DNA from: Hyphomonas sp.
Lineage (GTDB): Bacteria; Pseudomonadota; Alphaproteobacteria; Caulobacterales; Hyphomonadaceae
Reading direction: 5' to 3'
Assembly (NCBI GenBank): GCA_024743015.1
Contig: JANSXJ010000008.1
Span: 1 to 22,872, forward strand
DNA: 22,872 nt
Shown here: one piece after another, positions 5,446 through 22,026 of the stretch
How the letters are laid out: every line of letters begins with the position of its first letter
How positions within the stretch are numbered: the first letter of the stretch is position 1
Notes under the pieces: model-generated
What the model was told of the DNA's origin: nothing
Databases searched by the model: none
Seen by the model: only the letters and a program-made list of their open reading frames with translations
Program-made: the position numbers and the translations under genes

Positions 5446-5461
5446 AAATGATATATCTTTT
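5446..5461. promoter_or_regulatory. Cluster operator, copy 1 (DUF1330 / VOC divergent promoter)
   Basis: AAATGATATATCTTTT, one mismatch from the perfect palindrome AAATGATATATCATTT. It lies midway in the 92-base region between the DUF1330 start (5411) and the VOC start (5504), placed to control both operons. The identical 16-mer occurs before the TonB receptor. Confidence 0.8.
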
Positions 5462-5503
5462 CTTATGCCGCCCTTTTTAGGGCTTTGCAAAGGGTTTGGA
5501 GCC

Positions 5504-6385
5504 ATGAAACTTCTGCGCGCCGCCACGGTGACGGTCTCGGACCTAAATCGCAGTATCGATATCTACTCGCGCTGTTTCGATTACTCTGTTGTTGAGCGCG
5601 GCGAGATCAGCAATACGCTGGCTGAGAGTTGGCAGACGCCGAGCTCTGCAGGCTGCGCATTCGCGGTCATGCAGCCAGGCTCTGGCGCTGATATCTTTTT
5701 GCGGTTCATCGAACAGCCACCGGTCGAAGGTTTTAAAGCCCTGCGCTCCTATGGCTGGAACGCGATCGAGATTTGCGTTCAGGATGTGATGGCGGTGAAT
5801 GCCCGTATGCTAGAGAGCCCATTTGAGATTATCGGACCGCCGAACAAGATCCCGGGCCTCGACGCGATCCATCCGATGCAGGTCAAGGGCCCAGATGAGG
5901 AGATCGTCTATCTGACACAAATCAATGACGACCTTCCGGAATACAATCTACCCCGCGCAGGCAGCCTGATCGACAAGCTTTTCATTCTAGTCATGGGGAA
6001 CTCGGACATGGATCGCGCCGCGACATGGATGCAGGAAAAATGCGGCCTCGATTTTGGGCGCGAAATGGAGATCCCTTACACGATGATCGCCAAGGCCTAT
6101 GGAACGCCATTGGATGAGCTGCACAGGATCTGCACACTGATTCACGGCAAAGATGTCTTTCTGGAACTGGACCAATATCCGGACGCCGCCGTTCAGAGGC
6201 CGCGGCATAAGGGCATGCTGGTGCCTGGGTGCGCCATCGGGACACTCTTCCATCCGGAGTTTGACACCCTGCCCGGTCCCTGGCTGACACCACCCAGCGT
6301 TCGCGAAGGTGCCATATACATGGGAAAGCGTGTTGGCGTCTTAAAGGATCCCGACGGCACGCTCATCGAAATGGTTGAAGGATAA
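5504..6385 (+). CDS. Two-domain VOC (glyoxalase/bleomycin-resistance fold) protein
   Basis: A 293-residue vicinal-oxygen-chelate protein with two fused modules: about 1-130, from MKLLRAATVTVSDLNRSIDIYSR, and about 155-293, from KLFILVMGNSDMDRAATWM to VLKDPDGTLIEMVEG. VOC enzymes include extradiol dioxygenases, isomerases and lyases. The first-strand His that normally binds metal is absent in both modules (ATVTV and FILVM), while the last-strand Glu in LIEMVEG is kept, so this may be metal-free or use other ligands. The open frame extends back to 5381, but that region carries the operator and the oppositely oriented DUF1330 start; ATG 5504 has AAGGG and GGAG just upstream. Three bases separate its stop from the next gene, so it heads a three-gene operon. 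The substrate is unknown. Confidence 0.82.
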   Translation: MKLLRAATVTVSDLNRSIDIYSRCFDYSVVERGEISNTLAESWQTPSSAGCAFAVMQPGSGADIFLRFIEQPPVEGFKALRSYGWNAIEICVQDVMAVNARMLESPFEIIGPPNKIPGLDAIHPMQVKGPDEEIVYLTQINDDLPEYNLPRAGSLIDKLFILVMGNSDMDRAATWMQEKCGLDFGREMEIPYTMIAKAYGTPLDELHRICTLIHGKDVFLELDQYPDAAVQRPRHKGMLVPGCAIGTLFHPEFDTLPGPWLTPPSVREGAIYMGKRVGVLKDPDGTLIEMVEG

Positions 6386-6388
6386 GGC

Positions 6389-7402
6389 ATGAAACTTGGA
6401 ACGCTGAGACACGCGATCGACCATAAACCGGTCGCAGAGGATTTCACCATTATCGAAGCCGAGCGGCCAGCCTGCTCCGAAGATGGCCTGGTGGTACGCG
6501 TCGTTCACCTGTCGCTTGATCCCTATGTTGGCTCCCGCCTGCGCGGACGGCATATGGGAGAACCGGCGCCAACCCCGATGGAAGGTGCCATTCCGGGGGC
6601 GGTGATCGGCCAGGTCGTCGAAAGCCGCGCGTCGAAATTTGCCGAAGGGGATTGGGTGCATGTGATGGAGGGCGGTTGGCAGGAATTCATCGCAATACCT
6701 TCAGCTCACGCGCGCAAGATTGATCCGAAAGTTGCTCCCCTTGCCGCCCATGCGGGCGTTCTTGGCATGCCGGGACTCACAGCCTGGTCAGGCATCAGTC
6801 AGCTCGCCAAGGTGGGCAATGGCGACACCGTTCTCGTCGATGCCGCGGCTGGCCCAGTCGGTGGAACGGTCGGCCAAATCGCCCGCATAAAAGGCGCAGA
6901 CCGCGTGGTCGGCATCGCCGGCGGGCCAGAAAAATGTTCTTTGGTTACGGAGACTTACGGCTTTGATGCCTGTATCGACTATAAAGCGGAGGGTTGGCGT
7001 GATCGCCTCGCCGACGCCCTGCCCGACGGACTGTCCGTCTTCTTCGAGAACGTCTCGGCAGATATGGCCATGCTCGCTCTGACCCATGCCCGCACCTATG
7101 CGCGGGGTGTCCTCTGTGGCCTGGTCGATGCTTACCATACAGAGACGCAGAGCCAGCATCCTTTGAACGCTGGCCTGATCATCGGCAAGCGCGCGCAGCT
7201 GTTCGGGCTCGTCGTCTACGACTTCTATCCGCGCTGGGACGAGTATGTGGCAGAAGCCGCGCCGTGGATCGCCAGTGGTCAATTGAAATTCTCCGAGGAC
7301 CGCGCAGATGGCCTGGAAAATGCGCCTGCCTTGTTCGAGCGACTGATGAATGGCCAGAACAAGGGCAAAGCTGTCGTGACGGTCTCTGCGGAGCAAGTGT
7401 GA
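6389..7402 (+). CDS. Zinc-independent MDR family NADP-dependent oxidoreductase
   Basis: A 337-residue medium-chain dehydrogenase/reductase of the curcumin reductase / prostaglandin reductase / leukotriene 12-dehydrogenase type. These use NADPH to reduce the C=C bond of an alpha,beta-unsaturated ketone or aldehyde. Evidence: LSLDPYVGSRLRG (41-53), GMPGLTAWSGI (126-136), nucleotide loop DAAAGPVGGTVGQIA (151-165), then VVGIAGGPEKC and VFFENVSADM. The zinc-ligand pattern of alcohol dehydrogenases is absent. The start has AAGGA upstream and follows the VOC stop by three bases. The next ORF overlaps its stop in TGATG. It would act in the cytoplasm on an enone intermediate. Confidence 0.88.
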   Translation: MKLGTLRHAIDHKPVAEDFTIIEAERPACSEDGLVVRVVHLSLDPYVGSRLRGRHMGEPAPTPMEGAIPGAVIGQVVESRASKFAEGDWVHVMEGGWQEFIAIPSAHARKIDPKVAPLAAHAGVLGMPGLTAWSGISQLAKVGNGDTVLVDAAAGPVGGTVGQIARIKGADRVVGIAGGPEKCSLVTETYGFDACIDYKAEGWRDRLADALPDGLSVFFENVSADMAMLALTHARTYARGVLCGLVDAYHTETQSQHPLNAGLIIGKRAQLFGLVVYDFYPRWDEYVAEAAPWIASGQLKFSEDRADGLENAPALFERLMNGQNKGKAVVTVSAEQV

Positions 7403-8217
7403 TGGTTCGTAAGGGGTATGTCGACGGCACGCATGGCCAGATCCACTACCGGATAGCGAAATCCCGGGCAGAGTCGGAAAAACCACCACTCGTCTGTCTT
7501 CACCAAAGCCCGAAATGCGGGCTCGAGTTCGATACATTTATGCGCGAGGCCAGCCGCGACCGCACTGTGATCGCACCGGACTATCCTGGCTACGGCATGT
7601 CGGACCCCGCCCCTTCTGAGGACGACACAACCATCCCGATGTATGCCGAGGAGATGTGGCACCTGGCGGACGGTCTTGGCCTGGGCGTGGTCGATCTGTT
7701 CGGCAATCACACCGGCGCGAAAGTCGCTGCTCAGATGGCCCTTACGCAGGCTGATCGTGTGCATGCCATCGCGATGATCTCTGCCGCCATCCTCACCGAT
7801 CAAGAGCGCGAAATGTTCAAGGACATGTTCACGCCGATACCTCTCGACGCAGAACACACGCGCTTCAAAGTGAGTTGGGAACGGATCCGCGAGCGTCAGG
7901 GCCCGGGGCAGACACTCGAGATGATGGACCGCTCCATGTATATGAACATGATGGGTGGAGAAGCCTATGAGTGGGGCCACGTGGCGGCATTTGCCTGGGG
8001 CAAGCCGTTTGACGAAGCGCTGACGAAACTGCCGCACCGCATCACCCTCCTGAACCCGGTCGATGACCTGACCGAGTGTACTCGGCGAGCCATCCCGCTT
8101 TTACGAAACGGCGAGGTGATCGAATGCCCGCATTGGGGTTATGGCTTCATGGATGCGTTTCCGAAAGACACCGCGGATCTGGTGCTCAGCAAGCTGGATG
8201 CGTCCGTGTCTGCCTAA
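7402..8217 (+). CDS. Alpha/beta-hydrolase-fold protein with His in the nucleophile elbow
   Basis: A 271-residue alpha/beta-hydrolase-fold protein. The oxyanion-region motif is LHQSP (33-37) and the strand after it gives APDYPGYGMSDP. The nucleophile elbow, normally G-x-S-x-G, reads LFGNHTGAKVA: His103 replaces Ser. The other triad positions look present, with Asp221 or Asp222 in NPVDDLT and His244 in CPHWGYGFMDAFP. It may therefore not be a normal serine esterase; lyase, cofactor-free oxygenase or non-covalent hydrolysis are possibilities. I recall similar G-x-H-T-G elbows in proteobacterial homologues, so this is probably a subfamily trait. Start ATG 7402 overlaps the MDR stop (TGATG) with GGAG upstream. 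Its stop overlaps that of the MFS gene in CTAA. Confidence 0.85.
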   Translation: MVRKGYVDGTHGQIHYRIAKSRAESEKPPLVCLHQSPKCGLEFDTFMREASRDRTVIAPDYPGYGMSDPAPSEDDTTIPMYAEEMWHLADGLGLGVVDLFGNHTGAKVAAQMALTQADRVHAIAMISAAILTDQEREMFKDMFTPIPLDAEHTRFKVSWERIRERQGPGQTLEMMDRSMYMNMMGGEAYEWGHVAAFAWGKPFDEALTKLPHRITLLNPVDDLTECTRRAIPLLRNGEVIECPHWGYGFMDAFPKDTADLVLSKLDASVSA

Positions 8218-9722
8218 TGGCCGTCTGTGTATTTGTATTTACCGAGGAAGAGCAGCGGAATCGTCGATACAAACAGAATGACCGCCGCGCTGGTCAGCGT
8301 GAAGTTCCAATCCTGCCCTGGCAGAATGCCGAGATTAATGCCCAGGAAATGGATGCCGCGGCCATCAGCAATATCGGTCATGATGCTCGGTCCTAGGCCG
8401 GCACCAAGCGCGAAGAAACCATAGATCGCGCCATAGATCGCCGAATAGGATTTCATCCCGAAATATTTGGAGACCATGTAGGCCATGAAGTCATACTCGA
8501 CCCCGGCCCCGAACCCGATCATCAGGATCGCGATCGTAGCGGTGGTCGGCGTGACACCAGGCTGCGCCAGCATCCAAAGAGCGATGGCCGGTGATGCCAG
8601 AAACAGGAAGGCCACGCCCGGGGCCCAGAATCGGTCGATCAGATAGCCGCCAATGATTCGTCCGCCGAGCACAGCGAGGCCGGTGAGTGTGGCCAGTCCG
8701 ACGGCTTCGTCCATCCCAAACTCATTGGCCCGCAAGACGCGCTCAATGTTCGGGATAATCGCGCCGATTGCATAAGAGATCGGGACAAAGGAAATCGCCA
8801 GAACCCAGAAGCGCCATTCCTTCAGGGCTTGAGGTAGCGTCATGCCGGGCAGCTCCACTACTTGGCCTTCCTGGACCTCGGGCGGGGTCTTCTTGATGTC
8901 CAGAACCAGCATCAAAATCACTGGCACAAAGACCAGGCCGCAGAAGCCGAACGCCATAATATATTCCAGACGCAGTCCGTTTTGGCCGATCAGCGGGACG
9001 ACCTGATTGATGACCATCCAGACCAGACCAATCGTGCCCAGAAGCGCGATGCCAAGCACCGGATACTTCAGATTGACAATCGAGGCTTCACTCGCTGGTT
9101 CATCACTGACATCTCGCAGGCTGAGATACGATAGCGGCAGTGCGATCACGATGGGTAAGAGGCCGAGCAAGACATAGGCCGAGCGCCAGCCTGATCCGCC
9201 CACGAAGTGTAACGCCTCATTGGACACGATGTATTGCGATCCGAACTTCGCCAAGGCACCGAATACACCTGTCGCGATCAAGGCAATGCCGAGTGCGATG
9301 CCACGATTATGCTTGAACCAGTTGGCGACGGGGCGCGTGAAAGTGATCGGCAAAGTTCCTGCCCCGGCAAAGGCCAACACCAGCCATAAGGCAATGTAGA
9401 GCGACTTCGATCCGGTATTGAGTGCCAGCGCCATCATCGCGAGACCAAAGGTCACGATCGAGACAAGCGCGACGCGCCGCGCACCGAACTTTTCAGCTAG
9501 CACGCCGATAAAGGGCGAGGCGAAAAAAGCCCCGAACGTATAGATGGCAAGCGCGTTCAGAATATCTCCGGCCGACCATCCCATTGGTCCAAACTCTCCG
9601 AGCAAAGGCGGGATCATCACGCCGATCGTGTAGAATGGCAGCGGCGACAGGCCGAGCCCTACACCGACAGCGGCAGCGGCCAGTACCGGCCAACCGCGCT
9701 TGAATTCGCCGTCTTGCTCCAT
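8214..9722 (-). CDS. MFS transporter
   Basis: A 502-residue major facilitator with about twelve hydrophobic segments across the inner membrane. The loop after segment 2 reads GVLAEKFGARRVALVS, matching the MFS G-x-L-x-D-R-x-G-R-R signature with changes; TRPVANWFKHNRGIALGIA matches the monocarboxylate/OFA-like branch that carries organic acids. The ATG at 9722 (MEQDGEFKRGW) has GGAGG seven bases upstream; a start at 9743 lacks one. It faces the flavin oxidase gene across 96 bases that hold an operator copy. The 3' end overlaps the hydrolase gene by four bases. Likely imports or exports a pathway acid; direction cannot be told. Confidence 0.9.
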   Translation of the reverse strand: MEQDGEFKRGWPVLAAAAVGVGLGLSPLPFYTIGVMIPPLLGEFGPMGWSAGDILNALAIYTFGAFFASPFIGVLAEKFGARRVALVSIVTFGLAMMALALNTGSKSLYIALWLVLAFAGAGTLPITFTRPVANWFKHNRGIALGIALIATGVFGALAKFGSQYIVSNEALHFVGGSGWRSAYVLLGLLPIVIALPLSYLSLRDVSDEPASEASIVNLKYPVLGIALLGTIGLVWMVINQVVPLIGQNGLRLEYIMAFGFCGLVFVPVILMLVLDIKKTPPEVQEGQVVELPGMTLPQALKEWRFWVLAISFVPISYAIGAIIPNIERVLRANEFGMDEAVGLATLTGLAVLGGRIIGGYLIDRFWAPGVAFLFLASPAIALWMLAQPGVTPTTATIAILMIGFGAGVEYDFMAYMVSKYFGMKSYSAIYGAIYGFFALGAGLGPSIMTDIADGRGIHFLGINLGILPGQDWNFTLTSAAVILFVSTIPLLFLGKYKYTDGH

Positions 9723-9775
9723 GAATTCCTCCAGAATGATCAATTCGCGCTTGGCGCTTTTCGTTTCCTGATGTC

Positions 9776-9818: not shown

Positions 9819-11216
9819 ATGCAACTGACAAGACGGCACTTTGTGGCAATGAGTGGCCTCGCCGCCACCGCAGCCTGCACCCCGGCAATTGTCGAGACGT
9901 ATGATGCTGACGTCCTGATCCTGGGAGCGGGACTGGCAGGCCTCCACGCTGCGCGCATGTTGCAAGCGGACGGAATGAAGGTTCTCGTCCTGGAAGCCTC
10001 TGATCGTATTGGCGGGCGGATGTGGACATTGGACGATGTCCCGGGAAAACCGGAAGCGGGCGGCCAGCAGGTTGGCCAATCCTATGCCAGGGTGCGGTCC
10101 ACCGCGATCGATCTAGGTCTGAAGATTGTTCCTCCAAAACCGGGCGGATCAAGAGACAAGACCATGGTGCTCAATGGTCAGGTGTTCGATGCACGCGAAT
10201 GGGCAAGCTCTAGCGACAATCCCTTCCCCGAAGCTTTCAAGCGCGCCACGCCGGACGTTGCCCTGTTCATGGCAGCCGCGGGGGCGAACCCCTTGAAAGA
10301 CCAATATGCATGGCGAGAAGTCGGCACCGAGTTTGACATCAGCGCGGATGAATTTTTGAGCCAACAGGGTTTCGATGAACCGAGCCGTGCCCTGTGTGAT
10401 ATCGCCCTGAACGCCAACCAACTCACCACATATTCCATGCTGAATGTCTGGCGCAGCCTGACCCTGTTTCAACTCGACGCCTCCAGCGGCCCCTCGGAAG
10501 AAGTTGAGGGCGGCTCCCAACGATTGCCGGAAGCCATGGGTGCCAGCCTTGGCGGTGGCGCGGTTTTGACTGGCACCACCGTTACATCAATCGATGCATC
10601 GGGGCCTGGCGTGACCGTTCGCACGGTTGACCGCGCCTATCGCGCCCCATTTTGCGTCTGCACCCTTCCGTTCCCGGTGCTGCGCCAGATATCGCTCACA
10701 CCGGCCTCAGACGCGCCGTCGATCCAGCCGATCATCGAGGACATGGCGTACACACAGATCCAGCAAGTCTTTTTGGAGCTTGAGCAAGGCCCCGCCGATG
10801 GTCTTCCGCTCATGATGTGGTCGGATTCGCCGATCGAACGTGTGTTCCCGGTCAGGAATGCATCAGGAGAAACCGTCGCGCTGACCTGCTGGATCAACGG
10901 CACCGGAATTCGAAAAAGCGCCAGTGATGCCGATTGGATGCAACTGGCTGAACAAACGCTTCGCGATACGCGAGGCATCAAGGCACGCGCCCACAAAGTG
11001 TCGCGCTGGGATGAGTCTCAGCCGCTCAGCGGAGGTGCATATATGCATTGGGCGCCCGGACAGATTCAGCCCTGGGCAGAACGGGTCGTTGAGCCGACCG
11101 GCAATCTGCACTTTGCGGGAGAACACACATCCTACCTGCACACCGGGATGGAAGGCGCGATGGAATCCGGCGAGCGGGCCGCTTATGCGATCATTGAGGC
11201 TGCGGCGCCTGCATGA
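9819..11216 (+). CDS. Flavin amine oxidase family protein with Tat and lipoprotein signals
   Basis: A 465-residue FAD-binding oxidoreductase of the flavin monoamine oxidase family. Dinucleotide loop: [18 protein letters not shown] (31-48) followed by [12 protein letters not shown]. The C-terminal FAD motif [21 protein letters not shown] starts at residue 431. The N-terminus [20 protein letters not shown] joins a twin-arginine motif (TRRHFVA) with a lipobox ending at Cys20, so the enzyme is predicted to be folded with FAD, exported by Tat and lipid-anchored in the periplasm. ATG 9819 is chosen because starts further up overlap the operator; GAGG lies eleven bases upstream. Substrate may be an amine, amino acid or another oxidisable ring, since the family also holds desaturase-like members. 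The last 34 bases overlap the cysteine-synthase-like gene. Confidence 0.88.
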
Positions 11217-12250: not shown

Positions 12251-12268
12251 GCGGGCCTCCTATGGCAT
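12244..12268 (-). promoter_or_regulatory. Inverted repeat enclosing the ribosome site and start codon of the cysteine-synthase-like gene
   Basis: On the minus-strand transcript, ATGCCAT and ATGGCAT can pair around an 11-base loop that contains AGGAGG. The start codon lies in the 3' arm (ATGGCAT). This could hold back translation or, as DNA, be a binding site for the divergent Lrp/AsnC protein. Confidence 0.5.
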
Positions 12269-12300
12269 GGAGGATCGTCGAAAAACTCTCGAAAATCATT

Positions 12301-12759
12301 ATGAATATGATCGATGAAACCGACCGCCAAATCCTGCGTCATCTGCAACGTGACGCGACGGTTTCGCTCGAATCGCTCGCGGAAGAGCTAAGCGTTTCGG
12401 TGAATACCTGTTGGCGCCGCGTGCGGCGCCTGGAAGAAAGCGGCATCCTGAAATCGCGCGTTGCGATCTGTGACCCGGACATGCTGGATCTGGGTCAGAC
12501 CGTCTTCGTCGCAATCCGCACCCGCGATCACTCCGCCGAATGGCTGCAATCGTTCGCGTCTACGGTGACGGCGGTTCCGGAAGTTGTTGAGTTTTACCGC
12601 ATGGCCGGGGATGTCGACTATCTGCTCAAAATCATGGTCCGGTCCGTCGGTGATTATGATCGGGTCTACAAATCCCTGATCGAACAGATCGAAATCGCCG
12701 ATGTCAGCGCGACATTTGCCATGGAATGCCTGAAGAATACGACAGAGCTGCCGCTCTAA
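12301..12759 (+). CDS. Lrp/AsnC family transcriptional regulator
   Basis: A 152-residue regulator with an N-terminal winged helix-turn-helix (about 3-60: IDETDRQILRHLQRDATVSLESLAEELSVS, then TCWRRVRRLEESGILKSR) and a C-terminal RAM/AsnC ligand domain (VFVAIRTRD, VVEFYRMAGDVDYLLKIMVRSVGDYDRVY). Members bind amino acids and commonly regulate the gene next to them. The start ATGAATATG at 12301/12307 matches the family start (x-DETDR); no clear Shine-Dalgarno is present, so a leaderless or weakly translated message is possible. Divergent from the cysteine-synthase-like gene with 50 bases between, so control of that gene and of itself is likely. Its stop overlaps the CpeT-like gene stop in CTAA. 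Confidence 0.92.
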   Translation: MNMIDETDRQILRHLQRDATVSLESLAEELSVSVNTCWRRVRRLEESGILKSRVAICDPDMLDLGQTVFVAIRTRDHSAEWLQSFASTVTAVPEVVEFYRMAGDVDYLLKIMVRSVGDYDRVYKSLIEQIEIADVSATFAMECLKNTTELPL

Positions 12760-13694
12760 TCCGCGACGGCGTCAGGTGTATGGGTGCAACTCGCCTGGAT
12801 CCAACGCAAATTGATGCCAATCCGCTCGGCACCTGCTTCCGTCCAGGTATAAGACACCGCACGGTCGCTCTCGCCTTCGTGCACATACATGGTCAGTGAT
12901 GGCCGGTTCGTTCCGTAAGGCCAATCCACATCGCGCAGCTTCAAACGAATGCGGCGCGGGGTCTCCTCATCCGTCAGTAGCTCTGCCACTCCGCCTTGAT
13001 CATGCAGCATCACACCACGCCGGAAATCCCAGTCATTCATTCCCTCACCGCTATCACCGTGCTCAGCGCCGCGAAGTATGGCCGTCCAGCATTCGAACGG
13101 TCGGGCACGGCGCATCCGGGCTTCGACCAGCGCATCACCCCTCGCGCTTTGCACCCAAAATTCCTGTTCCGACAAGGTCAGCGTCACTTTCAGATCGCCG
13201 CCGTCTGCTGGTCGAGTGAAGATTAGCGGACACGCTTCGCCCGTGGCCGTGCCCTTGAACTGCCCGCTGGAACGCGCCCAGTGGATCTGGCAGTCGAACG
13301 GCTCCGGCGGTAGCACCCCTGCAGGGGCGGCCAGCGTCTGGCGGATCGTTTGGCTAGCCGCATCGATTGTAAAAGTGTGGATCAATTCGGTCGACATCTC
13401 GCCTTCGACCGTGCGAGTGGCTTTGAACTTAATCGTCAGTGGAGCGCTCTGTTCATCCCCCGCGAGCGCCACACGGGTCACCTCGATATGCTGGCGCGGT
13501 GCGAGTGTCGCTTCATCCAGCCCAGCCGCATCGGCGAAGAAGACGTGCCGGTCATTATCCCAGCGCCCTTCGAACTGATCGGTGAGTTCAACGAAGTCCT
13601 TTTCGAGCCAACCGGGCGTCTGGGCTTCCTGCGCGGTGGCACAGGCGGTTACCAATCCAATTGCGGTCGCGGATGTCAGACCCGTTTTCAACAT
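12756..13694 (-). CDS. Lipoprotein resembling the CpcT/CpeT chromophore-lyase fold
   Basis: A 312-residue exported lipoprotein: MLKTGLTSATAIGLVTAC with Cys18 as the lipidation site. The ATG at 13694 has AAAGGAT seven bases upstream; an ATG at 13712 lacks a ribosome site. The mature part starts with FVELTDQFEGRWDNDRHVFFAD and continues with PFDCQIHWARSSGQFKGTATGEACPL, which resembles CpcT/CpeT-type beta-barrels; these proteins attach bilins in cyanobacteria, but homologues are found in bacteria without phycobilins. No lyase activity should be assumed. It follows the TonB receptor on the same strand after an 82-base gap containing a hairpin, so it may be expressed by read-through. Placement in CpcT/CpeT is by pattern only. 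Confidence 0.6.
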   Translation of the reverse strand: MLKTGLTSATAIGLVTACATAQEAQTPGWLEKDFVELTDQFEGRWDNDRHVFFADAAGLDEATLAPRQHIEVTRVALAGDEQSAPLTIKFKATRTVEGEMSTELIHTFTIDAASQTIRQTLAAPAGVLPPEPFDCQIHWARSSGQFKGTATGEACPLIFTRPADGGDLKVTLTLSEQEFWVQSARGDALVEARMRRARPFECWTAILRGAEHGDSGEGMNDWDFRRGVMLHDQGGVAELLTDEETPRRIRLKLRDVDWPYGTNRPSLTMYVHEGESDRAVSYTWTEAGAERIGINLRWIQASCTHTPDAVAD

Positions 13695-13717
13695 CAATTT
13701 ATCCTTTCGCATATTTA

Positions 13718-13743
13718 AAGGGCGGATCGATAGACCCGCCCTT
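13718..13743 (-). terminator. Hairpin after the TonB receptor gene (weak terminator or attenuator)
   Basis: AAGGGCGG and CCGCCCTT form an eight-base stem around a ten-base loop. In the minus-strand transcript it is followed by TTAAAT rather than a run of U. It lies between the TonB receptor stop and the CpeT-like start, so it could reduce expression of the downstream gene or protect the receptor mRNA 3' end. Confidence 0.55.
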
Positions 13744-13776
13744 CAGAGAGTACACCTCAAGCTTGCGCAGGACGGG

Positions 13777-16242
13777 CTAGAATTCCGTGCTGAGCGTTAC
13801 CCCGATTTGTGAGCCGCGGCGAAGCGTGCCGACAAAGTTTCGCTTGAAGCTGTCGCCGCCATCGGCGTAACGCAGCACCAGCGGAGAGGAGTCTTCGTCC
13901 GTCAGGTTGCGGCCCCAGAGACGCAGCGTGTGCTGACCATTGGTCACGCCGATACGAGCACCAACGAGGGTCGCATCGCCTGTTTCCGCCTGATTATGCA
14001 CCTGCGAGAATTTGCTGGACTCATAGGACACATTCGCACCGGCAAAGAAATCCCAGTCCTTGTGGCCTGTTGCGCCTCTGTAATCGAGATCGAAGAAGAC
14101 CTGATGCTCTGCGGTCCGCGGAATCTCGCGGCCAACGATTGAGCCGAACGCATTCTGGAGACAAGGAGACATTGCATCACCCGGAATCTCAAAGAACTCA
14201 CATCCGACTGAACCATTCACCAGTCCGTCATCCAGAGTATCGAGCAGGACACCCTCATTCTGATCACGACCTGCAGTGAATTCGGTATCCGTCCAGGCGT
14301 AGTTCAACGTGGCAGTCAGGCCCTCAAAACTATCCGGAATGAACCGGAACTCGGCTTCCACACCGAGAATCTCCGCATCACCCGCATTGACTGTGGCCGA
14401 TGTCGTGTTCGTGTCGTTTACGCGAACATTCTGCGTAAGTTGATACCCTTGGACTTCGTTAAAAAAGCCAGCGAAGTTAGCCGTGAGTTGTCCGCCGAGA
14501 AAGACGTTTTTGGATCCAATCTCAATGGACTGCACTTCTTCTTCTTCGAACGTACCGAGACCGGCGAGTTGAGCCTGATTGGAGTTAAACCCGCCGGGCT
14601 TCTGACCTTCTGCATAAACCGCATAGAGCAGATTGTTCGGCGTCGCTTGCCAATCGATTGTCGCGCGAGGAGCGAAATTGTCGAAGCTCGCTGTCTGTAT
14701 TGGGTCACCCGGCGCAGAACGCTCAATATCTTCTTCCGCGTAACGGCCTTCCAGCGTGACCGAAACCGTATCGGTCAAGTCGTAGGAGACGAGACCAAAC
14801 ACCGCCTTGTTTTCGATGTCGAAAGTACTCGATCCAGTTGGCACCGCGATGATCGGCGATCCCAATGGGACGATGCCGATACAGGTCGGATTGAAGCCGC
14901 AAATGGTCTGCTGTGATGCAAGCTCTGCGGCAAAATTGGCACTGGCCGTTGCTTGAGCTCCGGCAGGCAATGAACGCGCGTCACGGCTCTTTTCCTCACC
15001 GTCCAGATAGTATGCACCCACCAAGGCTCTGAACCGATCGGTTTCATAGTTCAGGCGCAATTCCTGCGAAATCTCTTCTTCCTCAGAAGCATTGGCAAAT
15101 GTGAAATCCGCGATGCTGGTCGGATAGCCATACAGCGCCAGGAAGGGCGAGAAGCTTATGATATTGAGGGGAAAACCACCGGGGACAAAATTGGTGGCTT
15201 GGAACCGCGTTGGAGAATAGTCCCCATCGGTTTGCTGACTGACGTCTCGGCTGTTGAAGCCTGTGATCGATGTGATCGACCAGTTATCATTCAGGTCGCC
15301 ATCAATCGACAGACTAAGCTGCGTGTTCTCAATCTCGGTTCCGGCATTTGGGCCGACTTGAAGCCGATAGTCCGTGTTGACATCGCGCGGCTGAACAGTG
15401 CCGCAGAAGTAACGCCCTTGCCCACCATACAGAGCCCCATTGTCAAAGAAACAATTGTTCTCCGCGGCCGTCGTTGCAAACAGAGCCGGCTGACCGTCAT
15501 CACTGTTGGAATAGTAACCGCGCAAACGAATGTCCCAATTATCATTTGGCGTCAAATAAAGGACGCTCGAAACCGATTGCGTGGTTTCTTCGCCGATAAG
15601 TTGACCGTCAAACTGATTGGTAAATTCCCCATCATAATTATAGAATCTCGTGTTCACACCGAATGCGACGAAGTCATTGATCGCTCCGCCAAAGCCGATG
15701 CTGAGATCCTGTTGACCATGTTCTGCCAGGTCGATGCTGGCGCGCGCCGAGAATTCCTCCTGCGGCGTGCGCGTGATGATATTGATCGCGCCGGAATATG
15801 TGTTGCGTCCATAGAGCGCGCTTTGTGGCCCTTTCACCACCTCGATGCGCTCGACATCGTTCAGGTCATAATCGGTAATAGCGCCCGAGATCCGCACGCC
15901 ATCGATAAAGTAAGACACCCCCGATGCGCCGAGGATGTTGGCCTGCCCCCGAATCACAGGCCGGTTCGAATCGCGACCGAATTCATTATCGAAGCTTAGT
16001 CCGGCCGTGAGCTTTGAGATGTCGGACAGGTCCACCAGAGACAGATTGTCTATCGTTTCAGCCGAGACAACCGAGACAGCGACCGGTGTTTCCTGAACGC
16101 TTTCCTCAGTTTTCCTTGCGGTCACTGTAATGACATCCTGACGCGCTTCCGGCTCATCCTCAGCGTCCTGCGCGAGGGCAGGTGCATTATACGCGGTCAT
16201 GGCCAGCGCGGCTGCGCCCACCATCAAAATCGACTTCGTCAT
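13777..16242 (-). CDS. TonB-dependent outer-membrane receptor
   Basis: An 821-residue outer-membrane receptor for energised uptake. Signal peptide 1-24 (ending APALA), TonB box DVITVT (36-41), plug domain about 45-155 with RPVIRGQ, DGVRI, DVERIEVVKGPQSALYGRNTYSGAINIITRTP, then a 22-strand type barrel ending in RGSQIGVTLSTEF with the usual terminal Phe. The barrel style is that of the large receptors of sphingomonads and Hyphomonadaceae used for organic substrates rather than plainly siderophore-type. GGGAG precedes the ATG. The operator at 16290 lies 47 bases upstream. It is probably the entry point of the pathway substrate, but the ligand cannot be read. Confidence 0.95.
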   Translation of the reverse strand: MTKSILMVGAAALAMTAYNAPALAQDAEDEPEARQDVITVTARKTEESVQETPVAVSVVSAETIDNLSLVDLSDISKLTAGLSFDNEFGRDSNRPVIRGQANILGASGVSYFIDGVRISGAITDYDLNDVERIEVVKGPQSALYGRNTYSGAINIITRTPQEEFSARASIDLAEHGQQDLSIGFGGAINDFVAFGVNTRFYNYDGEFTNQFDGQLIGEETTQSVSSVLYLTPNDNWDIRLRGYYSNSDDGQPALFATTAAENNCFFDNGALYGGQGRYFCGTVQPRDVNTDYRLQVGPNAGTEIENTQLSLSIDGDLNDNWSITSITGFNSRDVSQQTDGDYSPTRFQATNFVPGGFPLNIISFSPFLALYGYPTSIADFTFANASEEEEISQELRLNYETDRFRALVGAYYLDGEEKSRDARSLPAGAQATASANFAAELASQQTICGFNPTCIGIVPLGSPIIAVPTGSSTFDIENKAVFGLVSYDLTDTVSVTLEGRYAEEDIERSAPGDPIQTASFDNFAPRATIDWQATPNNLLYAVYAEGQKPGGFNSNQAQLAGLGTFEEEEVQSIEIGSKNVFLGGQLTANFAGFFNEVQGYQLTQNVRVNDTNTTSATVNAGDAEILGVEAEFRFIPDSFEGLTATLNYAWTDTEFTAGRDQNEGVLLDTLDDGLVNGSVGCEFFEIPGDAMSPCLQNAFGSIVGREIPRTAEHQVFFDLDYRGATGHKDWDFFAGANVSYESSKFSQVHNQAETGDATLVGARIGVTNGQHTLRLWGRNLTDEDSSPLVLRYADGGDSFKRNFVGTLRRGSQIGVTLSTEF

Positions 16243-16289: not shown

Positions 16290-16305
16290 AAATGATATAT
16301 CTTTT
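16290..16305. promoter_or_regulatory. Cluster operator, copy 3 (TonB receptor / DUF3598 divergent promoter)
   Basis: AAATGATATATCTTTT, identical to copy 1 over all sixteen bases. It lies 47 bases from the TonB receptor start and 100 bases from the DUF3598-like start, in a 163-base divergent region that otherwise shows no recognisable element. Confidence 0.8.
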
Positions 16306-16405: not shown

Positions 16406-16912
16406 ATGCCCGATGGGATGACATCAAACGAGCTAAAGAAACTGATGCCCCTGCTGGCGCGTCACGAAGGCGTTTGGGAAGGCACGTATCGGTTCTATGA
16501 CGCATCTGGCGCACTTATCGATGAACACGCCTCCAGGCTGATCTGCCGGTTCCCCGAGACGGGCCACCCTTATCACCAGACCAACTTGTACCGCTGGGCG
16601 GACGGGAAACGCGAAACGCGCGACTTCCCGGCCGCAGTTGAGAATGGACGTCTCAAATGGGATAATGAATTCATCAATGGCTGGGCCTGCGACATTGCCC
16701 TGGATGATTTCAACCGCACAACAATGTTGAACTGGACCCGCACGGGCGAGCCGGACCTGTACCTGTATGAAATGATCCAGCTTTCCGATGATGGTCAGGC
16801 GCGTGCCCGCGTCTGGCAGTGGTTCAAAGCCGATCGCCTGTTCCAACGCACGCTGGTGGATGAGCGGTTCGTCAGCAAAGACTGGCAATCCTACGAGAAC
16901 CAGGATTTCTAG
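16406..16912 (+). CDS. DUF3598-like calycin-fold protein
   Basis: A 168-residue soluble protein without a signal peptide. The pattern LARHEGVWEGTYRFYDASG, SRLICRFPETG, YHQTNLYRWADGKRETRDFPA, INGWACDIALDD and DLYLYEMIQLSDDGQARARVWQWF fits the DUF3598 family, a beta-barrel group related to allene oxide cyclase-like calycins and best known from cyanobacteria. Many Trp and Tyr residues suggest a hydrophobic ligand pocket. The biochemical role is unknown. ATG 16406 has AAGGAG seven bases upstream. Divergent from the TonB receptor with the operator between, so probably induced with it. The family call is by memory of the pattern. Confidence 0.7.
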   Translation: MPDGMTSNELKKLMPLLARHEGVWEGTYRFYDASGALIDEHASRLICRFPETGHPYHQTNLYRWADGKRETRDFPAAVENGRLKWDNEFINGWACDIALDDFNRTTMLNWTRTGEPDLYLYEMIQLSDDGQARARVWQWFKADRLFQRTLVDERFVSKDWQSYENQDF

Positions 16913-16980: not shown

Positions 16981-17355
16981 ATGAAACTGTTCACCGCCCT
17001 TCGGATACTCCTGCTCGCCGTAGCCGCTTTCGGCTATTTCGCGAACGGAGCGCAGGCACATCTTAAAATCACCAAAGGTGAGTCGCTCAGCTTGATGCTG
17101 TGCAGCACCGACTCTCCAAGAACGGTGACGCTGGATCTGCCAGGCACCCCGGCTCAGGAAGATCCCGAGTCGTGTTGCGGGGATTGCACGCCGCCCGTTG
17201 CAATCACGCAGCCGCATGTGTCGCCAAAGGCCCGGTCGCTTCCTTTTGCGCAGCTGCTCCCTTTTCACTTACCAGCCGCGGTGTTTCCAAGATCGCCGCT
17301 TTGGCCGGGCGCACCGCCCCAGGGCCCACCATCAATTCACAAACACTCAGCCTAA
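16981..17355 (+). CDS. DUF2946-like small exported Cys-rich protein
   Basis: A 124-residue protein with signal peptide (MKLFTALRILLLAVAAFGYFANGAQA), then LMLCSTDS (Cys41), ESCCGDCTPP (Cys65, 66, 69) and a Pro-rich C-terminus ending APPQGPPS, the usual layout of DUF2946. Members often sit beside copper-responsive outer-membrane genes, and the cysteines suggest metal binding; both are inference here. No clear Shine-Dalgarno before the ATG. It is 68 bases after the DUF3598-like gene and 46 bases before the Met-rich outer-membrane protein, which is its likely partner. Confidence 0.7.
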   Translation: MKLFTALRILLLAVAAFGYFANGAQAHLKITKGESLSLMLCSTDSPRTVTLDLPGTPAQEDPESCCGDCTPPVAITQPHVSPKARSLPFAQLLPFHLPAAVFPRSPLWPGAPPQGPPSIHKHSA

Positions 17356-17401
17356 CCCTGAAATTCGGTACATTCGTGCCGACCTGTTTGTGAGATAAAT
17401 T

Positions 17402-18487: not shown

Positions 18488-18501
18488 AACGGCTCAACTA
18501 A

Positions 18502-18529
18502 AAAAGCCGGGCTCTCGAGCCCGGCTTTT
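18502..18529. terminator. Bidirectional intrinsic terminator
   Basis: A perfect 12-base stem, AAAAGCCGGGCT with AGCCCGGCTTTT, encloses the tetraloop CTCG, giving a U tract on either strand. It lies between the convergent ends of the Met-rich outer-membrane gene and the DUF1838 gene, 14 bases past one stop and 22 past the other. Confidence 0.93.
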
Positions 18530-18551
18530 GATTTTGAGTTTCTAGACCGAT

Positions 18552-19472
18552 CTACTCACTCGTACGATCTGGTTTAGGGATCGAGCCGTCGACAATCCCT
18601 TTATAGTACTTCCAGCTGGTCATGTTCTTGCGCGGATCACCGGAAGGTGGCGGGCTCGTATATTCCGGATAATGGGTTGCGATCTCCGCCTTCATCGTAT
18701 CGGAGAGCTGGTCGAAGCTCTCCAGCTTGTAACCGGCTGTGTGCATGTACAGCATGCCTTCGCGACCATTCATGTTCATCCATGGCAGCCAGTCCGCCAT
18801 CCGCGCCCAGCCAACGGTGATCTTTGCAGAGTCCTGATTGGGGTCGAGCAAGTCATCCGTGCGCCCGAAGAAGTTGAACATCTCTGTCGCGTGATAGGTG
18901 CCCCCAATCTCTTTCTGGAATTCGCCGCCGAGAGGGTTTGGATACCAGAGCGGCACTGTGCTGCGCATCCACCACGTGCCGTCTTCGCCAATCTCACCAC
19001 GCCATTGCAATGGCGAACCATCGCGATTGGTCTCATACATTTTGAAGTTCACCGGGTCATTTGCCACGTGGAGCACATCCACGGTTTCGCCCGTCCAAGG
19101 ATTGTCCCAGGTCGAGAGTACTTCACCTGTATCCTTGTCTTTGTATAGCAGGATCTCGCGCGAAACGAGGTGCAGGCCTTTACCGAGCGTTTCGTCGTCG
19201 AGCGTCGAGCAGGCCCGAATGTTCATGCCTTCGACATCGAAGACGTGCATGTCTTTCTCACCCTGTTTGCGGGTCAACGCGATGCCATGCCACCAATAGA
19301 CCTCAGGTTGGTCATCGACAGTTGAGCACATGATTTTGCGCATGATAGTGAGTGAGTCAGCAGCGTCTGTTGGATCGAGCTGCGCGCCTTCCTGCGCCTG
19401 GCTGAGCGTCGCGCAAGCCGACAAAGCCGCGACGGAAGCCCCAATTGCTGCGATTTTTGAAACGAGTTTCAT
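18552..19472 (-). CDS. DUF1838 family lipoprotein
   Basis: A 306-residue exported lipoprotein: MKLVSKIAAIGASVAALSAC with lipidated Cys20 and Ala next, so outer-membrane sorting is likely. The mature part, from DAADSLTIMRKIMCSTVDDQPEVYWWHG through HVFDVEGMNIRACSTLDDE, TWDNPWTGETVDVLHVANDPVNF and SAKITVGWARMADWLPWMNM, matches the DUF1838 family. Its function has not been established; the Trp-rich strands suggest a lipocalin-like ligand pocket. GGAGGTGG precedes the ATG, and the perfect palindromic operator abuts that ribosome site, 12 bases from the start. It follows the symporter gene on the same strand by 39 bases but has its own operator. Convergent end closed by a terminator. Confidence 0.85.
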   Translation of the reverse strand: MKLVSKIAAIGASVAALSACATLSQAQEGAQLDPTDAADSLTIMRKIMCSTVDDQPEVYWWHGIALTRKQGEKDMHVFDVEGMNIRACSTLDDETLGKGLHLVSREILLYKDKDTGEVLSTWDNPWTGETVDVLHVANDPVNFKMYETNRDGSPLQWRGEIGEDGTWWMRSTVPLWYPNPLGGEFQKEIGGTYHATEMFNFFGRTDDLLDPNQDSAKITVGWARMADWLPWMNMNGREGMLYMHTAGYKLESFDQLSDTMKAEIATHYPEYTSPPPSGDPRKNMTSWKYYKGIVDGSIPKPDRTSE

Positions 19473-19484
19473 AGGTCCACCTCC

Positions 19485-19500
19485 AAATGATATATCATTT
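19485..19500. promoter_or_regulatory. Cluster operator, copy 4 (perfect palindrome upstream of DUF1838)
   Basis: AAATGATATATCATTT is a perfect 16-base palindrome and defines the consensus. It fills most of the 39-base gap between the symporter stop and the DUF1838 start and directly touches the GGAGG ribosome site, so any DUF1838 promoter must overlap it or lie within the symporter 3' end. Confidence 0.85.
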
Positions 19501-19511
19501 AAGTGGCACGG

Positions 19512-20960
19512 TTATTTGCTCTCGCCAACCCTTAACTCGCTCGACGCGGGAGTTTTTCTCGTCACACCCGCCAATCCCATGGCTGCAAATGCACCGAGCC
19601 ATGGCGCAATCGTTGTCCAGATACCGCCCGGTCCCGCGTCGATCCAACCGACTTCGTAAGCCACCGCGAGGCCAAATCCCGTGACCATTCCCGTCAACAC
19701 CGTTCGCCCCCGCGGTTTGAACCCTATCGTGCGAGCGACCACGACCGGACCAAACGCAGCTCCAAGAGCCACCCACGCGAACAGGATGCGTTTGAAAATG
19801 CTCGACGGCGCCAACAAGGTGAGCAAAACAGCAGCTATGCAGACCGCGACGATAGCAAGGCGGGACACCAAGACTTCCCGCCCGCCTAGCGCTCGCCCGA
19901 GACCGAGATCGTGCGACACCGCACCGCCCGCCACCAGCAATTGGCTGTCTACCGTCGACATGATCGCGGACAAGGTCGTAGCGGCGACGATACCTGCGAA
20001 AATTGGCGGTAAAAGGTCTTCCGCGAGCGTGAAGAAAACGCTTTCCGGCGCCGCGTCGCCGCCAAGGATCGCGCGGCCAGATAGTCCCAATACCGCCATC
20101 CCAGCGAAGACCAGCGCCGCCCAGCTCATCGCCACAGCTGCGCCTTTCACACGCGCACCTGTATCTTTGGTGGCCATGATCCATGCAACAAGATGAGGTT
20201 GTCCGAGCGCGCCAAATCCAGTCGCCGTCAGACCGAGAACAAAGCCGGCCGCTGCCCAACCCGCACGCGCGCCGAAGACGCTACCATAAGCTTCGGGCGC
20301 GTCGGCCATGGCCTGTGAAATGCCAGGCAGCCCACCGGCCTCGGCAAACGCCAGGGCCGGCAACAAGACGGCCACAAAAGCCATCAGCAATCCTTGAATG
20401 GTGTCGGTCAATGAAACCGCTAGAAAGCCGCCTAGAAAAACATAGGCGAGAATGATCAGCGCCCCGATGACAACGCCCGGCACAAAGCCTGTTTCGAAGA
20501 TGTCATTGATCGCCGTTCCAGCCCCTTGGAATTGCCCCGCGACGTAGAATGAGAAACAGATCGCGATCAGGATCGACGCGACGATCCGAATGAGCCTCGC
20601 TGAGCCGGGATGCGCGTATTGCGTCATGAATTCGGTGAGGGTCAACTGCCCTTCATCCCGGCTCGCGGATTGGAGCACGCCGCCCGCCCAAAGCCAGACC
20701 GCTGCGTATCCTGCAATGATACCCGGCACCATCCATAAAGCCGACGGTCCAGCCACAAAGACAAAGCCGGAAAAGCCAAGCAAAACCCACGCACTGGAGC
20801 TGGAGGCCGCATATGCGAGCCCGGCAACCCACGGGCCCAAATTGCGTCCACCCAACAGGAAGTCCTCTTGAGACTTGGCGCGCTGCGCTGCCCACAAGCC
20901 CACCCCGAACAGGATCGCCGAGTAGATCAACAGCGTGATCAGTGCTGGTAAATTCTGCAA
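19512..20960 (-). CDS. Sodium:solute symporter (SSS family, PutP-like)
   Basis: A 482-residue inner-membrane symporter with about thirteen hydrophobic segments. Family signals: the early loop KSQEDFLLGGRNLGPWVAGLA, the Na+-site helix AASSSSAWVLLGFSG, FGALGQPHLVAWIMA (the G-x-x-GQPH block typical of PutP), and ATTLSAIMSTVDSQLLVAGGAVSHD (the second SSS signature). PutP itself carries proline, but substrate cannot be read. The start is TTG at 20960 with the strong GGGGAGGTG seven bases upstream. It lies 36 bases after the HMG-CoA-lyase-like gene, so the two form an operon controlled from the double operator at 21993-22026. Confidence 0.92.
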   Translation of the reverse strand: MQNLPALITLLIYSAILFGVGLWAAQRAKSQEDFLLGGRNLGPWVAGLAYAASSSSAWVLLGFSGFVFVAGPSALWMVPGIIAGYAAVWLWAGGVLQSASRDEGQLTLTEFMTQYAHPGSARLIRIVASILIAICFSFYVAGQFQGAGTAINDIFETGFVPGVVIGALIILAYVFLGGFLAVSLTDTIQGLLMAFVAVLLPALAFAEAGGLPGISQAMADAPEAYGSVFGARAGWAAAGFVLGLTATGFGALGQPHLVAWIMATKDTGARVKGAAVAMSWAALVFAGMAVLGLSGRAILGGDAAPESVFFTLAEDLLPPIFAGIVAATTLSAIMSTVDSQLLVAGGAVSHDLGLGRALGGREVLVSRLAIVAVCIAAVLLTLLAPSSIFKRILFAWVALGAAFGPVVVARTIGFKPRGRTVLTGMVTGFGLAVAYEVGWIDAGPGGIWTTIAPWLGAFAAMGLAGVTRKTPASSELRVGESK

Positions 20961-20996
20961 GCCGACACCTCCCCAGATTGGCCTTGTGGGTCTCCG

Positions 20997-21947
20997 CTAT
21001 TCCGCAGCTGCGGGCACGGGTGCACCCTTAAAGCCAAGCGGCAGTCCTGCGCGCGGCGTAAACCCATACAGTTCCTCGCCCGGAAGCGCCGCCGAGACAA
21101 TGTCGCGCGTCGCCATTAACGCTTCGAGATCAATCCCGGTGTCCACGCCCATCGATTCGAACATGAAGACCAAATCTTCGGTCACGACATTGCCGCTGGC
21201 ACCGGGAGCCGTCGGGCAGCCGCCAAGCCCGCCAAGGGAACTGTCAAATGTCGTAATGCCCTCTTCGTAAGCGGCCATGACATTCGCGAGACCAAGCCCC
21301 CGCGTATTGTGCAAATGAACGCCGGTCAGATTTTCATCTCCGACCACTCTGCGCACGGCCCGGATCAGGTGTCGCATCGAGGCCGGATCACCGTAGCCCG
21401 TCGTATCGGACAGCCCGACCTCGTCACAACCGGCAGCCATCAGGCGTTCAGCGGATTTGAGAATAACCTGCTCATCAATGGGCCCTTCCAGGGTGCACCC
21501 AAACGCCGTCGACAAGGATCCTTCAAAGTGCGGACGTTTGCCATCAGATTGCTCCGCGATCAGGTTTGCGATGGCCTTGGCCTCGTCGATAACCTGATCA
21601 TGGGTGCGGCGAATATTGCGCAACGAGTGTGTTTCGCTGACCGATAGCGGCAATGTAATCTTGTGCGCTCCAGCCGCGATGGCGAGCTGCGCCCCTTTCA
21701 GGTTCGGCACCAGAACAGCAACTTCGAGGCCCGGAATTTGAACGGCGTGGCGAACGATTTCGTCAGTATCCGCCATTTGGGGCAGCAGTTTGGGTGAGAC
21801 AAAGGAGCCCACCTCGATCTCTTTGACACCTGCTGCCGCGAGCGCTGAGATCCACCGCTTCTTGTCTTCGGTTGGCATGATCCCACTGCAGTTCTGGAGG
21901 CCATCGCGCGGACCGACTTCACTGATCAAAACGTTACTTGTGGTCAT
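20997..21947 (-). CDS. Hydroxymethylglutaryl-CoA lyase-like enzyme
   Basis: A 316-residue TIM-barrel lyase of the HMG-CoA lyase branch of the DRE-TIM family; the known reaction splits 3-hydroxy-3-methylglutaryl-CoA into acetyl-CoA and acetoacetate. Metal and catalytic positions are present: EVGPRDGLQN (Arg14, Asp15), HLHNTRG (His211, His213), GGCPTAPGASGN (Cys244, Asn253), TED. The usual HDTYG after the metal His pair is HNTRG here, a change near the active site that may shift specificity to another branched 3-hydroxyacyl-CoA. ATG 21947 has GAGG upstream; the frame is open far further back, but that stretch is antisense to the CoA-transferase. First gene of a minus-strand operon with the symporter. 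Confidence 0.88.
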   Translation of the reverse strand: MTTSNVLISEVGPRDGLQNCSGIMPTEDKKRWISALAAAGVKEIEVGSFVSPKLLPQMADTDEIVRHAVQIPGLEVAVLVPNLKGAQLAIAAGAHKITLPLSVSETHSLRNIRRTHDQVIDEAKAIANLIAEQSDGKRPHFEGSLSTAFGCTLEGPIDEQVILKSAERLMAAGCDEVGLSDTTGYGDPASMRHLIRAVRRVVGDENLTGVHLHNTRGLGLANVMAAYEEGITTFDSSLGGLGGCPTAPGASGNVVTEDLVFMFESMGVDTGIDLEALMATRDIVSAALPGEELYGFTPRAGLPLGFKGAPVPAAAE

Positions 21948-21992
21948 GGTTGTTGCCTCATTTAATGATCCATACGGCGTGACCTGATTGCC

Positions 21993-22008
21993 AAATGATA
22001 TATCTAAT
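21993..22008. promoter_or_regulatory. Cluster operator, copy 5a (lyase / CoA-transferase divergent promoter)
   Basis: AAATGATATATCTAAT, with the left half and core identical to the consensus. It lies 45 bases from the lyase start. A second copy begins 18 bases further on. Confidence 0.8.
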
Positions 22009-22010
22009 GC

Positions 22011-22026
22011 AATTGATATATCTATT
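22011..22026. promoter_or_regulatory. Cluster operator, copy 5b (tandem second site)
   Basis: AATTGATATATCTATT, sharing the TGATATATC core and with one A-to-T change in the left arm. It repeats copy 5a at an 18-base interval and is 53 bases from the CoA-transferase start. The pair may allow cooperative binding or separate control of the two divergent operons. Confidence 0.75.

What the first reader, a model, noticed from the sequence alone, without database searches (positions are those of the whole stretch)
5446..22026. A shared 16-bp palindromic operator defines a single regulon across 16 kb
AAATGATATATCATTT or a close variant occurs at 5446, 9776 (minus), 16290, 19485, 21993 and 22011. All six are intergenic, and four of the five loci are divergent promoter regions. 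A given 12-mer such as AAATGATATATC is expected about 0.003 times in this length on both strands by chance; it is seen at four loci exactly and at two more with one change. The sites tie the TonB receptor, both carriers, the flavin oxidase, DUF1838, DUF3598, DUF1330 and the VOC, MDR, hydrolase, lyase and CoA-transferase genes into one control unit.
Basis: seen in the sequence. Interest (0 to 1): 0.82.

Follow-up and report, generated by a model that had tools for sequence, protein, structure and literature searches.

The report
Operator of a large catabolic regulon
A repeated 16-letter DNA palindrome marks many gene switches in a marine bacterium, is most likely bound by one repressor-type protein encoded elsewhere in the genome, and appears to control a large, uncharacterised pathway for eating a nitrogen-containing ring compound.

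Summary
Six copies of AAA(T/A)GATATATC(A/T)TTT-like palindromes lie in five promoter regions. The regulon is larger than claimed: the same genome holds nine more convincing sites on eight other contigs. All six window sites recur before orthologous genes in two congeners.

The AsnC protein in the window is probably not the regulator. The best candidate is a GntR/HutC-subfamily (UTRA) protein on contig C134 ("GntR1"), flanked by two sites. In 80 relatives, >=5 sites occur in 15 of 19 genomes with GntR1 and 1 of 61 without. A site lies in the fetched locus of 18 of 19 relatives' GntR1 genes at >=42% identity, against 2 of 15 loci of a second UTRA protein and 0 of 10 AsnC loci. GntR1 keeps the arginine that reads G(-4) in NagR.

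Operators sit a median 45 bp before start codons, which suggests repression relieved by a metabolite.

The genes look like uptake and catabolism of a cyclic imide: PuuE/cyclic-imidase-like proteins, isochorismatase, LeuCD, C-C lyases. Alkylmaleimides, perhaps from tetrapyrroles, fit. The substrate is inference. No binding was measured.

The parts
5446..5461 (.). operator 1, between DUF1330 (-) and VOC (+)
   Evidence: 16 of 16 identical in congeners G022 and G028 and in G047; 34 and 42 bp from the two start codons
9776..9791 (.). operator 2, between MFS carrier (-) and flavin amine oxidase (+)
   Evidence: operator 94-100% identical at the orthologous place in G022, G028, G047
16290..16305 (.). 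operator 3, between TonB receptor (-) and 168-aa protein (+)
   Evidence: identical in G022 and G028 although the rest of that spacer is 43% and 74% identical
19485..19500 (.). operator 4, perfect palindrome 12 bp before DUF1838 start (-)
   Evidence: site 11-13 bp before the DUF1838 start in G022, G028, G047
21993..22008 (.). operator 5a of a tandem pair
   Evidence: pair identical in G022 and G028; G047 has a single shifted site
22011..22026 (.). operator 5b, 18 bp from 5a; pair between HMG-CoA-lyase-like gene (-) and CoA-transferase (+)
5118..5411 (-). DUF1330 protein, then 4277-5116 (no Pfam hit); probable regulon operon
   Evidence: operator 34 bp upstream
5501..8217 (+). VOC / zinc-type MDR oxidoreductase / alpha-beta hydrolase operon
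   Evidence: Pfam; operator 42 bp upstream
8214..9719 (-). MFS carrier
   Evidence: Pfam
9819..11216 (+). flavin amine oxidase family protein
   Evidence: Pfam; PDB relatives
12756..16242 (-). TonB-dependent receptor (13777-16242) and following 318-aa gene (12756-13712, no Pfam hit)
   Evidence: Pfam
16406..16912 (+).
   Evidence: no Pfam hit; orthologue with site in G022, G028, G047
18552..19472 (-). DUF1838 protein
   Evidence: Pfam E 9.6e-69
19512..21950 (-). HMG-CoA-lyase-like gene (20997-21950) then sodium:solute symporter (19512-20960)
   Evidence: Pfam; HMG-CoA lyase subfamily 292 bits, above its cutoff of 246; operator pair upstream
22080..22872 (+). family III CoA-transferase, cut by the contig end
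   Evidence: not scanned with Pfam; 34% identical (E 4e-28) to a Pfam-confirmed CoA_transf_3 protein of the same cluster in G022
12292..12759 (+). AsnC/Lrp regulator, judged NOT the regulator of these sites
   Evidence: no site in the 10 best AsnC loci

Best explanation
The palindrome is the operator of one GntR-family, HutC-subfamily (UTRA) regulator, GntR1, encoded at G000:C134:705-1505. GntR1 most likely binds as a dimer: the winged-helix arginine reads G(-4) of each half-site. The operator lies between promoter and ribosome-binding site, or over the promoter, so binding blocks transcription. A pathway metabolite bound to the UTRA domain would release it. GntR1 controls at least 14 promoter regions in this genome, including its own, covering import and catabolism of one class of compound. 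Shown by computation: operator identity, conservation, genome-wide spread, linkage to the GntR1 gene, family assignment. Inferred: direct binding, dimer, repression, effector. The likely substrate class is a cyclic imide such as an alkylmaleimide (weaker).
For: Own genome: 18 pattern hits, 0 for the reversed control; 15 of the 18 fit the regulon. GntR1 has a site on each side of its gene (C134:558, C134:1533). In 80 relatives, >=5 sites in 15 of 19 genomes with GntR1 (>=180 bits) and 1 of 61 without, Fisher 8.8e-12; cut-offs chosen after seeing the data, genomes not independent. The single exception, G044 (88% complete), has sites before pathway genes, so GntR1 may be missing from its assembly. 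Site in the fetched locus (about 1.5 kb each side) of 18 of 19 relatives' GntR1 genes at >=42% identity, 16 of 19 within 220 bp of the gene; reversed control 0. G001, with only 2 sites in its genome, has one 161 bp from its GntR1 gene. In genomes not used for the matrix, 18 of 27 PuuE-like2 loci have a site, control 0. Operators outlast spacer divergence (G022 94-100% against 43-78%). 55 of 60 pattern hits in four genomes lie within 300 bp of a start codon, median 45 bp; 4 of the 5 others are ORF-caller artefacts. NagR Arg48, which reads G(-4), is conserved in GntR1; Arg38, which reads G(-5), is Gln in GntR1, and -5, left free in the pattern, is A or T in 95% of half-sites.
Against: No binding or expression data. 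Co-occurrence alone does not separate GntR1 from GntR2, a second UTRA protein of the same cluster (13 of 14 against 3 of 66, Fisher 2.4e-11); only adjacency and three discordant genomes (G035, G038, G025) do. Four genomes with GntR1 have fewer than 5 sites (G001, G030, G039, G068). Two of the 18 flanking sites (G058, G050) are weak and 583-631 bp from the gene; G066 has none. Only 4 of 29 class-level homologue loci have a site. The search pattern itself demands G(-4) and C(+4), so their invariance in the matrix is partly by construction. Gln at position 38 is not kept in G060, G039, G030 and G068. GntR1 could activate at some promoters.
Confidence: 0.9

Rival explanations
1. The AsnC/Lrp regulator inside the window (12292-12759) binds the palindromes.
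For: It is the only regulator among the 20 window proteins scanned, it lies in or near the cluster in several relatives, and it shows some co-occurrence (7 of 10 genomes with a >=220-bit match have >=5 sites).
Against: 9 of 70 genomes without such a match have >=5 sites; G015 has an 89% identical copy and 2 sites, G026 a 75% copy and 0. No site in the 10 AsnC loci fetched, the 10 best matches of many.
Confidence: 0.03
2. The second UTRA regulator of the cluster (GntR2, G000:C34:4790-5500) binds the palindromes.
For: Co-occurrence as strong as GntR1 by Fisher test; same subfamily.
Against: Not found in G035 (96% complete) and G038 (86%), each with 14 sites; present in G025 with 2 sites. Site in only 2 of 15 GntR2 loci, one of them about 1.3 kb from the gene.
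Confidence: 0.05
3. The palindromes are AT-rich promoter or chance sequence, not an operator.
For: GATATATC resembles promoter -10 elements.
Against: Shuffles give 0.003 per window; in the 61 relatives lacking GntR1 there are 48 hits against 70 for the reversed control, so background there is at chance; presence is bimodal within one genus (13-17 sites in 5 relatives, 0-2 in the other 23).
Confidence: 0.01
4. The regulon serves another substrate than an imide, for example a ureide, pyrimidine product or other N-heterocycle.
For: The PuuE-like proteins also resemble allantoinase; the isochorismatase is closest to N-carbamoylsarcosine amidohydrolases in PDB; CN-hydrolase is generic.
Against: LeuCD with a methylisocitrate-lyase-like or RipC-like C-C lyase in the same clusters as the imidases points to alkylated C4 dicarboxylates.
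Confidence: 0.5

Closest known systems
NagR (YvoA) of Bacillus subtilis and DasR, GntR/HutC repressors
   Same: GntR wHTH plus UTRA; palindromic operator; conserved Arg48 matches G(-4) (PMC4333415, passages read)
   Different: Operator core is GATATATC; Arg38 is replaced by Gln and position -5 is A/T; the regulated genes seen are not for amino sugars
HutC, histidine utilisation repressor
   Same: Same subfamily; A+T-rich palindrome (HutC operator recalled, not tested; one search found no paper)
   Different: NCBIfam HutC score 113.8 against cutoff 220; no hut genes among the regulon proteins scanned
Cyclic-imide catabolism (HxnM of Aspergillus nidulans, Pseudomonas putida imidase)
   Same: PuuE-related cyclic imidase followed by an amidase (PMC9304392, passages read)
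   Different: Here three PuuE-like proteins, LeuCD and C-C lyases follow; substrate unknown
Itaconate degradation RipABC
   Same: RipB-like hydratase, RipC-like lyase and family III CoA-transferase
   Different: RipB- and RipC-like proteins score below the NCBIfam equivalog cutoffs; embedded in a larger N-ring pathway

Membership tests
GntR/HutC (UTRA) transcription regulators | N-terminal GntR winged helix | tested here: met
   Pfam PF00392 1.6e-21
GntR/HutC (UTRA) transcription regulators | C-terminal UTRA effector domain | tested here: met
   Pfam PF07702 2.6e-35
GntR/HutC (UTRA) transcription regulators | Arg48-type arginine facing G(-4) of a palindrome | tested here: met
   sequence alignment only, with the dyad placed between -1 and +1; the contact itself is inferred
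GntR/HutC (UTRA) transcription regulators | effector-controlled DNA binding | not testable with these tools
   needs gel shift
NagR | Arg38 facing G(-5) | tested here: not met
   Gln in GntR1; -5 is G in only 5% of half-sites
HutC (histidine utilisation) | score above NCBIfam equivalog cutoff | tested here: not met
   113.8 < 220
PhnF (phosphonate) | score above NCBIfam equivalog cutoff | tested here: not met
   128.9 < 156.8
PuuE allantoinase | score above NCBIfam cutoff | tested here: not met
   PuuE-like1 226.7 and PuuE-like2 117.3 < 424.6; PuuE-like3 not scanned against NCBIfam
RipB / RipC itaconate enzymes | score above NCBIfam cutoff | tested here: not met
   RipB 239.2 < 340; RipC 232.6 < 375

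The most novel reading that the evidence does not exclude
GntR1 governs a dedicated aerobic pathway for alkylmaleimides released from tetrapyrroles (heme, bilins or chlorophyll products) in marine Hyphomonadaceae and kin. TonB receptors take up the pigment fragments; PuuE-like imidases open the maleimide; amidases free ammonia; LeuCD hydrates the alkylmaleate; and C-C lyases (HMG-CoA-lyase-like with CoA-transferase, RipC-like, or methylisocitrate-lyase-like) split it to pyruvate plus an acyl unit.
Probability: 0.27. Interest if true: 0.78.

Novelty: new member of a known kind. Interest (0 to 1): 0.52.

Why it matters
It gives a defined operator, a named candidate regulator and a gene list for an uncharacterised catabolic regulon (43-53 kb where contiguous) that comes and goes between closely related bacteria. 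The GntR1 operator can be used to find pathway genes of unknown function (DUF1838, the 230-aa, 247-aa and 280-aa families) in other genomes, and GntR1 itself could serve as a biosensor to identify the substrate. If the alkylmaleimide reading holds, it would supply a bacterial route for end products of tetrapyrrole breakdown. My searches of open-licence full texts found no description of such a pathway or of this regulon; subscription journals were not searched.

Tried and rejected
Rejected: AsnC in the window as regulator, GntR2 as regulator, chance (see rivals). Four of the 18 three-mismatch hits (C59, C410, C432, C470) were dropped because they fail the refined pattern. Three of the 18 refined hits were dropped: the C346 pair (PadR look-alike) and C14:3047 (deep inside a gene). 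The matrix left out the TTTCG look-alikes and all hits on G000.C14, G000.C346, G047.B and G047.C. The refined pattern was written after looking at the sites.

Dead ends: paper searches for the pathway and regulon returned nothing; one search gave one unrelated DUF1838 paper (listing only); DUF1838 has no convincing PDB relative (best E 0.13). The substrate could not be fixed by homology. No structure was predicted.
Full report
CHECK OF THE OBSERVATION. They fall in five promoter regions, four of them divergent. Starts at 9819 and 21947-21950 put sites 2, 5a and 5b between genes; the G022 orthologues agree.

THE REGULON IS GENOME-WIDE. The window is a whole contig (C569) of a draft genome of 585 contigs, 87.5% complete. 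At up to 3 mismatches the genome has 18 sites and the reversed control 1. The refined pattern WWWNGRTATAYCNWWW gives 18 and 0. Of these 18, I count 15 as regulon sites: six in the window, and C107:2496, C134:558, C134:1533, C159:3751, C228:562, C324:15209, C447:12331, C541:639, C574:2445. Three are set aside (see noticed items). Genes behind the outside sites: GntR1 itself, divergent from a second DUF1838-like gene; a hydrophobic protein of about 220 aa (no Pfam hit) with an FAD-linked oxidase and aldehyde dehydrogenase; VOC, zinc-type MDR and MFS; another VOC protein; a second TonB receptor; LeuC and LeuD; HapK-like, SDR and PuuE-like1 genes; and a 230-aa protein.

CONSERVATION. In G022 the regulon is one cluster of about 53 kb (C1:6136-59212) plus one site elsewhere; in G047 about 43 kb (C1:1664688-1708174) plus two pattern hits elsewhere, one of them PadR-type. 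Both clusters contain GntR1. In G028 the regulon is split, as here. Of the 15 sites, 13 have a counterpart before the orthologous gene in the stretches fetched from G028 and 11 in those from G022. All five window loci have one in G047. Sites are 94-100% identical between G000 and G022 where the rest of the spacer is 43-78%. Against G047 three align at 88-100% but 19485 at 75% and the 21993 pair at 50%, because the sites there are shifted. The matrix comes from 56 sites of four genomes (22 distinct). Its G(-4), C(+4) and central TATA are demanded by the pattern; in the looser search, 46 of the 47 sites listed for G008, G014, G028 and G038 keep G(-4) and C(+4).

THE REGULATOR. Three candidates were compared in 80 relatives. 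GntR1 (L017:705-1505, Pfam GntR and UTRA) at >=180 bits is in 19, of which 15 have >=5 sites; of 61 without, 1 has. That one, G044, is an 88% complete draft whose sites lie before pathway genes. GntR2 does as well by Fisher test (13 of 14, 3 of 66), because it sits in the same cluster; AsnC does worse (7 of 10, 9 of 70). Cut-offs were set after seeing the data and genomes are related, so the p-values overstate. Adjacency decides. A site is in the fetched locus of 18 of 19 relatives' GntR1 genes at >=42% identity (16 of 19 within 220 bp) and in 1 of 10 fetched loci below 40%, of 11 such matches; against 2 of 15 GntR2 loci and 0 of the 10 best AsnC loci. G035 and G038 have 14 sites and GntR1 but no GntR2 match; G025 has GntR2 and 2 sites. 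In a draw of 385 genomes of the class, 4 of 29 homologue loci scanned have a site, control 0.

HOW IT MOST LIKELY WORKS. In NagR, G(-5) is read by Arg38 and G(-4) by Arg48 (PMC4333415, passages). GntR1 aligned to YvoA/NagR keeps Arg48 and has Gln at 38. Its operator has G(-4), and A or T at -5 in 95% of half-sites. The Gln is not universal: Ala or Glu in G060, G039, G030 and G068. Many operators lie 10-50 bp before start codons, with spacing conserved between species: LeuC 15-16 bp, DUF1838 11-13 bp, the hydrophobic protein 15-18 bp. This is the geometry expected for repression by blocking. The 60 hits include two PadR-type look-alikes, C14:3047 and one G047 hit outside the cluster. Repression, and its relief by a ligand, are inferred from the family.

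WHAT IT CONTROLS. Over the full cluster: TonB receptors, SSF and MFS carriers; three PuuE-like proteins (PDB PuuE allantoinase E 1.1e-57 for PuuE-like1; 3.5e-25 for PuuE-like2; PuuE-like3 by Pfam only); isochorismatase (best PDB N-carbamoylsarcosine amidohydrolase); CN-hydrolase and amidase; LeuCD; RipB- and RipC-like proteins; three family III CoA-transferases (two by Pfam; one by similarity); HMG-CoA-lyase; acyl-CoA dehydrogenase and two MmgE/PrpD; aldehyde dehydrogenase. Cyclic imidases are relatives of PuuE (PMC9304392 and PMC3084791, passages). Having guessed from imidase, amidase and LeuCD that an alkylmalate lyase should be nearby, I scanned an unnamed gene that recurs near LeuCD and PuuE-like2 in four other genomes of the order: in three it is methylisocitrate-lyase/PEP-mutase-like (292-295 aa, E 5e-87 to 2e-88, below the equivalog cutoff); in the fourth a paralogue was scanned (271 aa, E 2e-44) and the copy beside LeuCD was not. 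In these four genomes LeuCD is only 33-36% identical to ours, and this lyase was not seen in the Henriciella cluster. PuuE-like2 itself is in 80 of 398 genomes of the order drawn. Maleimides are regarded as degradation products of tetrapyrrole pigments (PMC8669743, passages), so tetrapyrrole fragments are one possible source. This remains a hypothesis. The comparison to 2,3-dimethylmalate enzymes of anaerobic nicotinate fermentation is recalled.

PLACE AMONG KNOWN SYSTEMS. GntR1 is a GntR/HutC protein by domain tests. It is not HutC, PhnF or NagR by the tests made. The regulon is a new member of a known kind; the pathway may be new.

Noticed in passing
L140:3238-3274 (G000:C346); G028:C1:262535-262572; G047:C1:891983: Look-alike palindrome TTTCGATATATC..., paired 21-22 bp apart in G000 and G028, before a PadR-family gene: probably a separate PadR operator that a loose GATATATC search would confuse with this one.
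   Followed up: partly
window 13777-16242: The TonB receptor is 94% identical to G028 but only 34-36% to the receptor in the same slot of G022 and G047, while the genes around it are mostly 66-91% identical to G022: receptor replacement inside a conserved cluster.
   Followed up: no
L016:2531-3223 and L138:6064-6756: A 230-aa gene that sits in the cluster in G022 and G047 lies elsewhere in G000 and G028, still with its operator 19-20 bp upstream, next to a phage-integrase-family (tyrosine recombinase) gene.
   Followed up: partly
window 11183-12759: The PALP enzyme and divergent AsnC gene sit between regulon promoters but have no site of their own. The pair also lies near GntR1 in G001; in G047 it is not in the cluster, and the best AsnC match is about 0.7 Mb away with a stop inside.
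   Followed up: partly
window 16981-18487: A 124-aa gene and a Phenol_MetA_deg-type gene are present here; the latter is also in G028 but not between the same neighbours in G022 and G047.
   Followed up: no
L024:15209-18026 (G000:C324): A second, paralogous operon (247-aa-like, 230-aa-like, FAD-linked oxidase, 26-42% identical) also has an operator upstream.
   Followed up: no
L117:653-7062: In the Ponticaulis locus the core module directly follows RtcR, RtcB and RNA-cyclase genes with a Ro60/TROVE-like protein.
   Followed up: no
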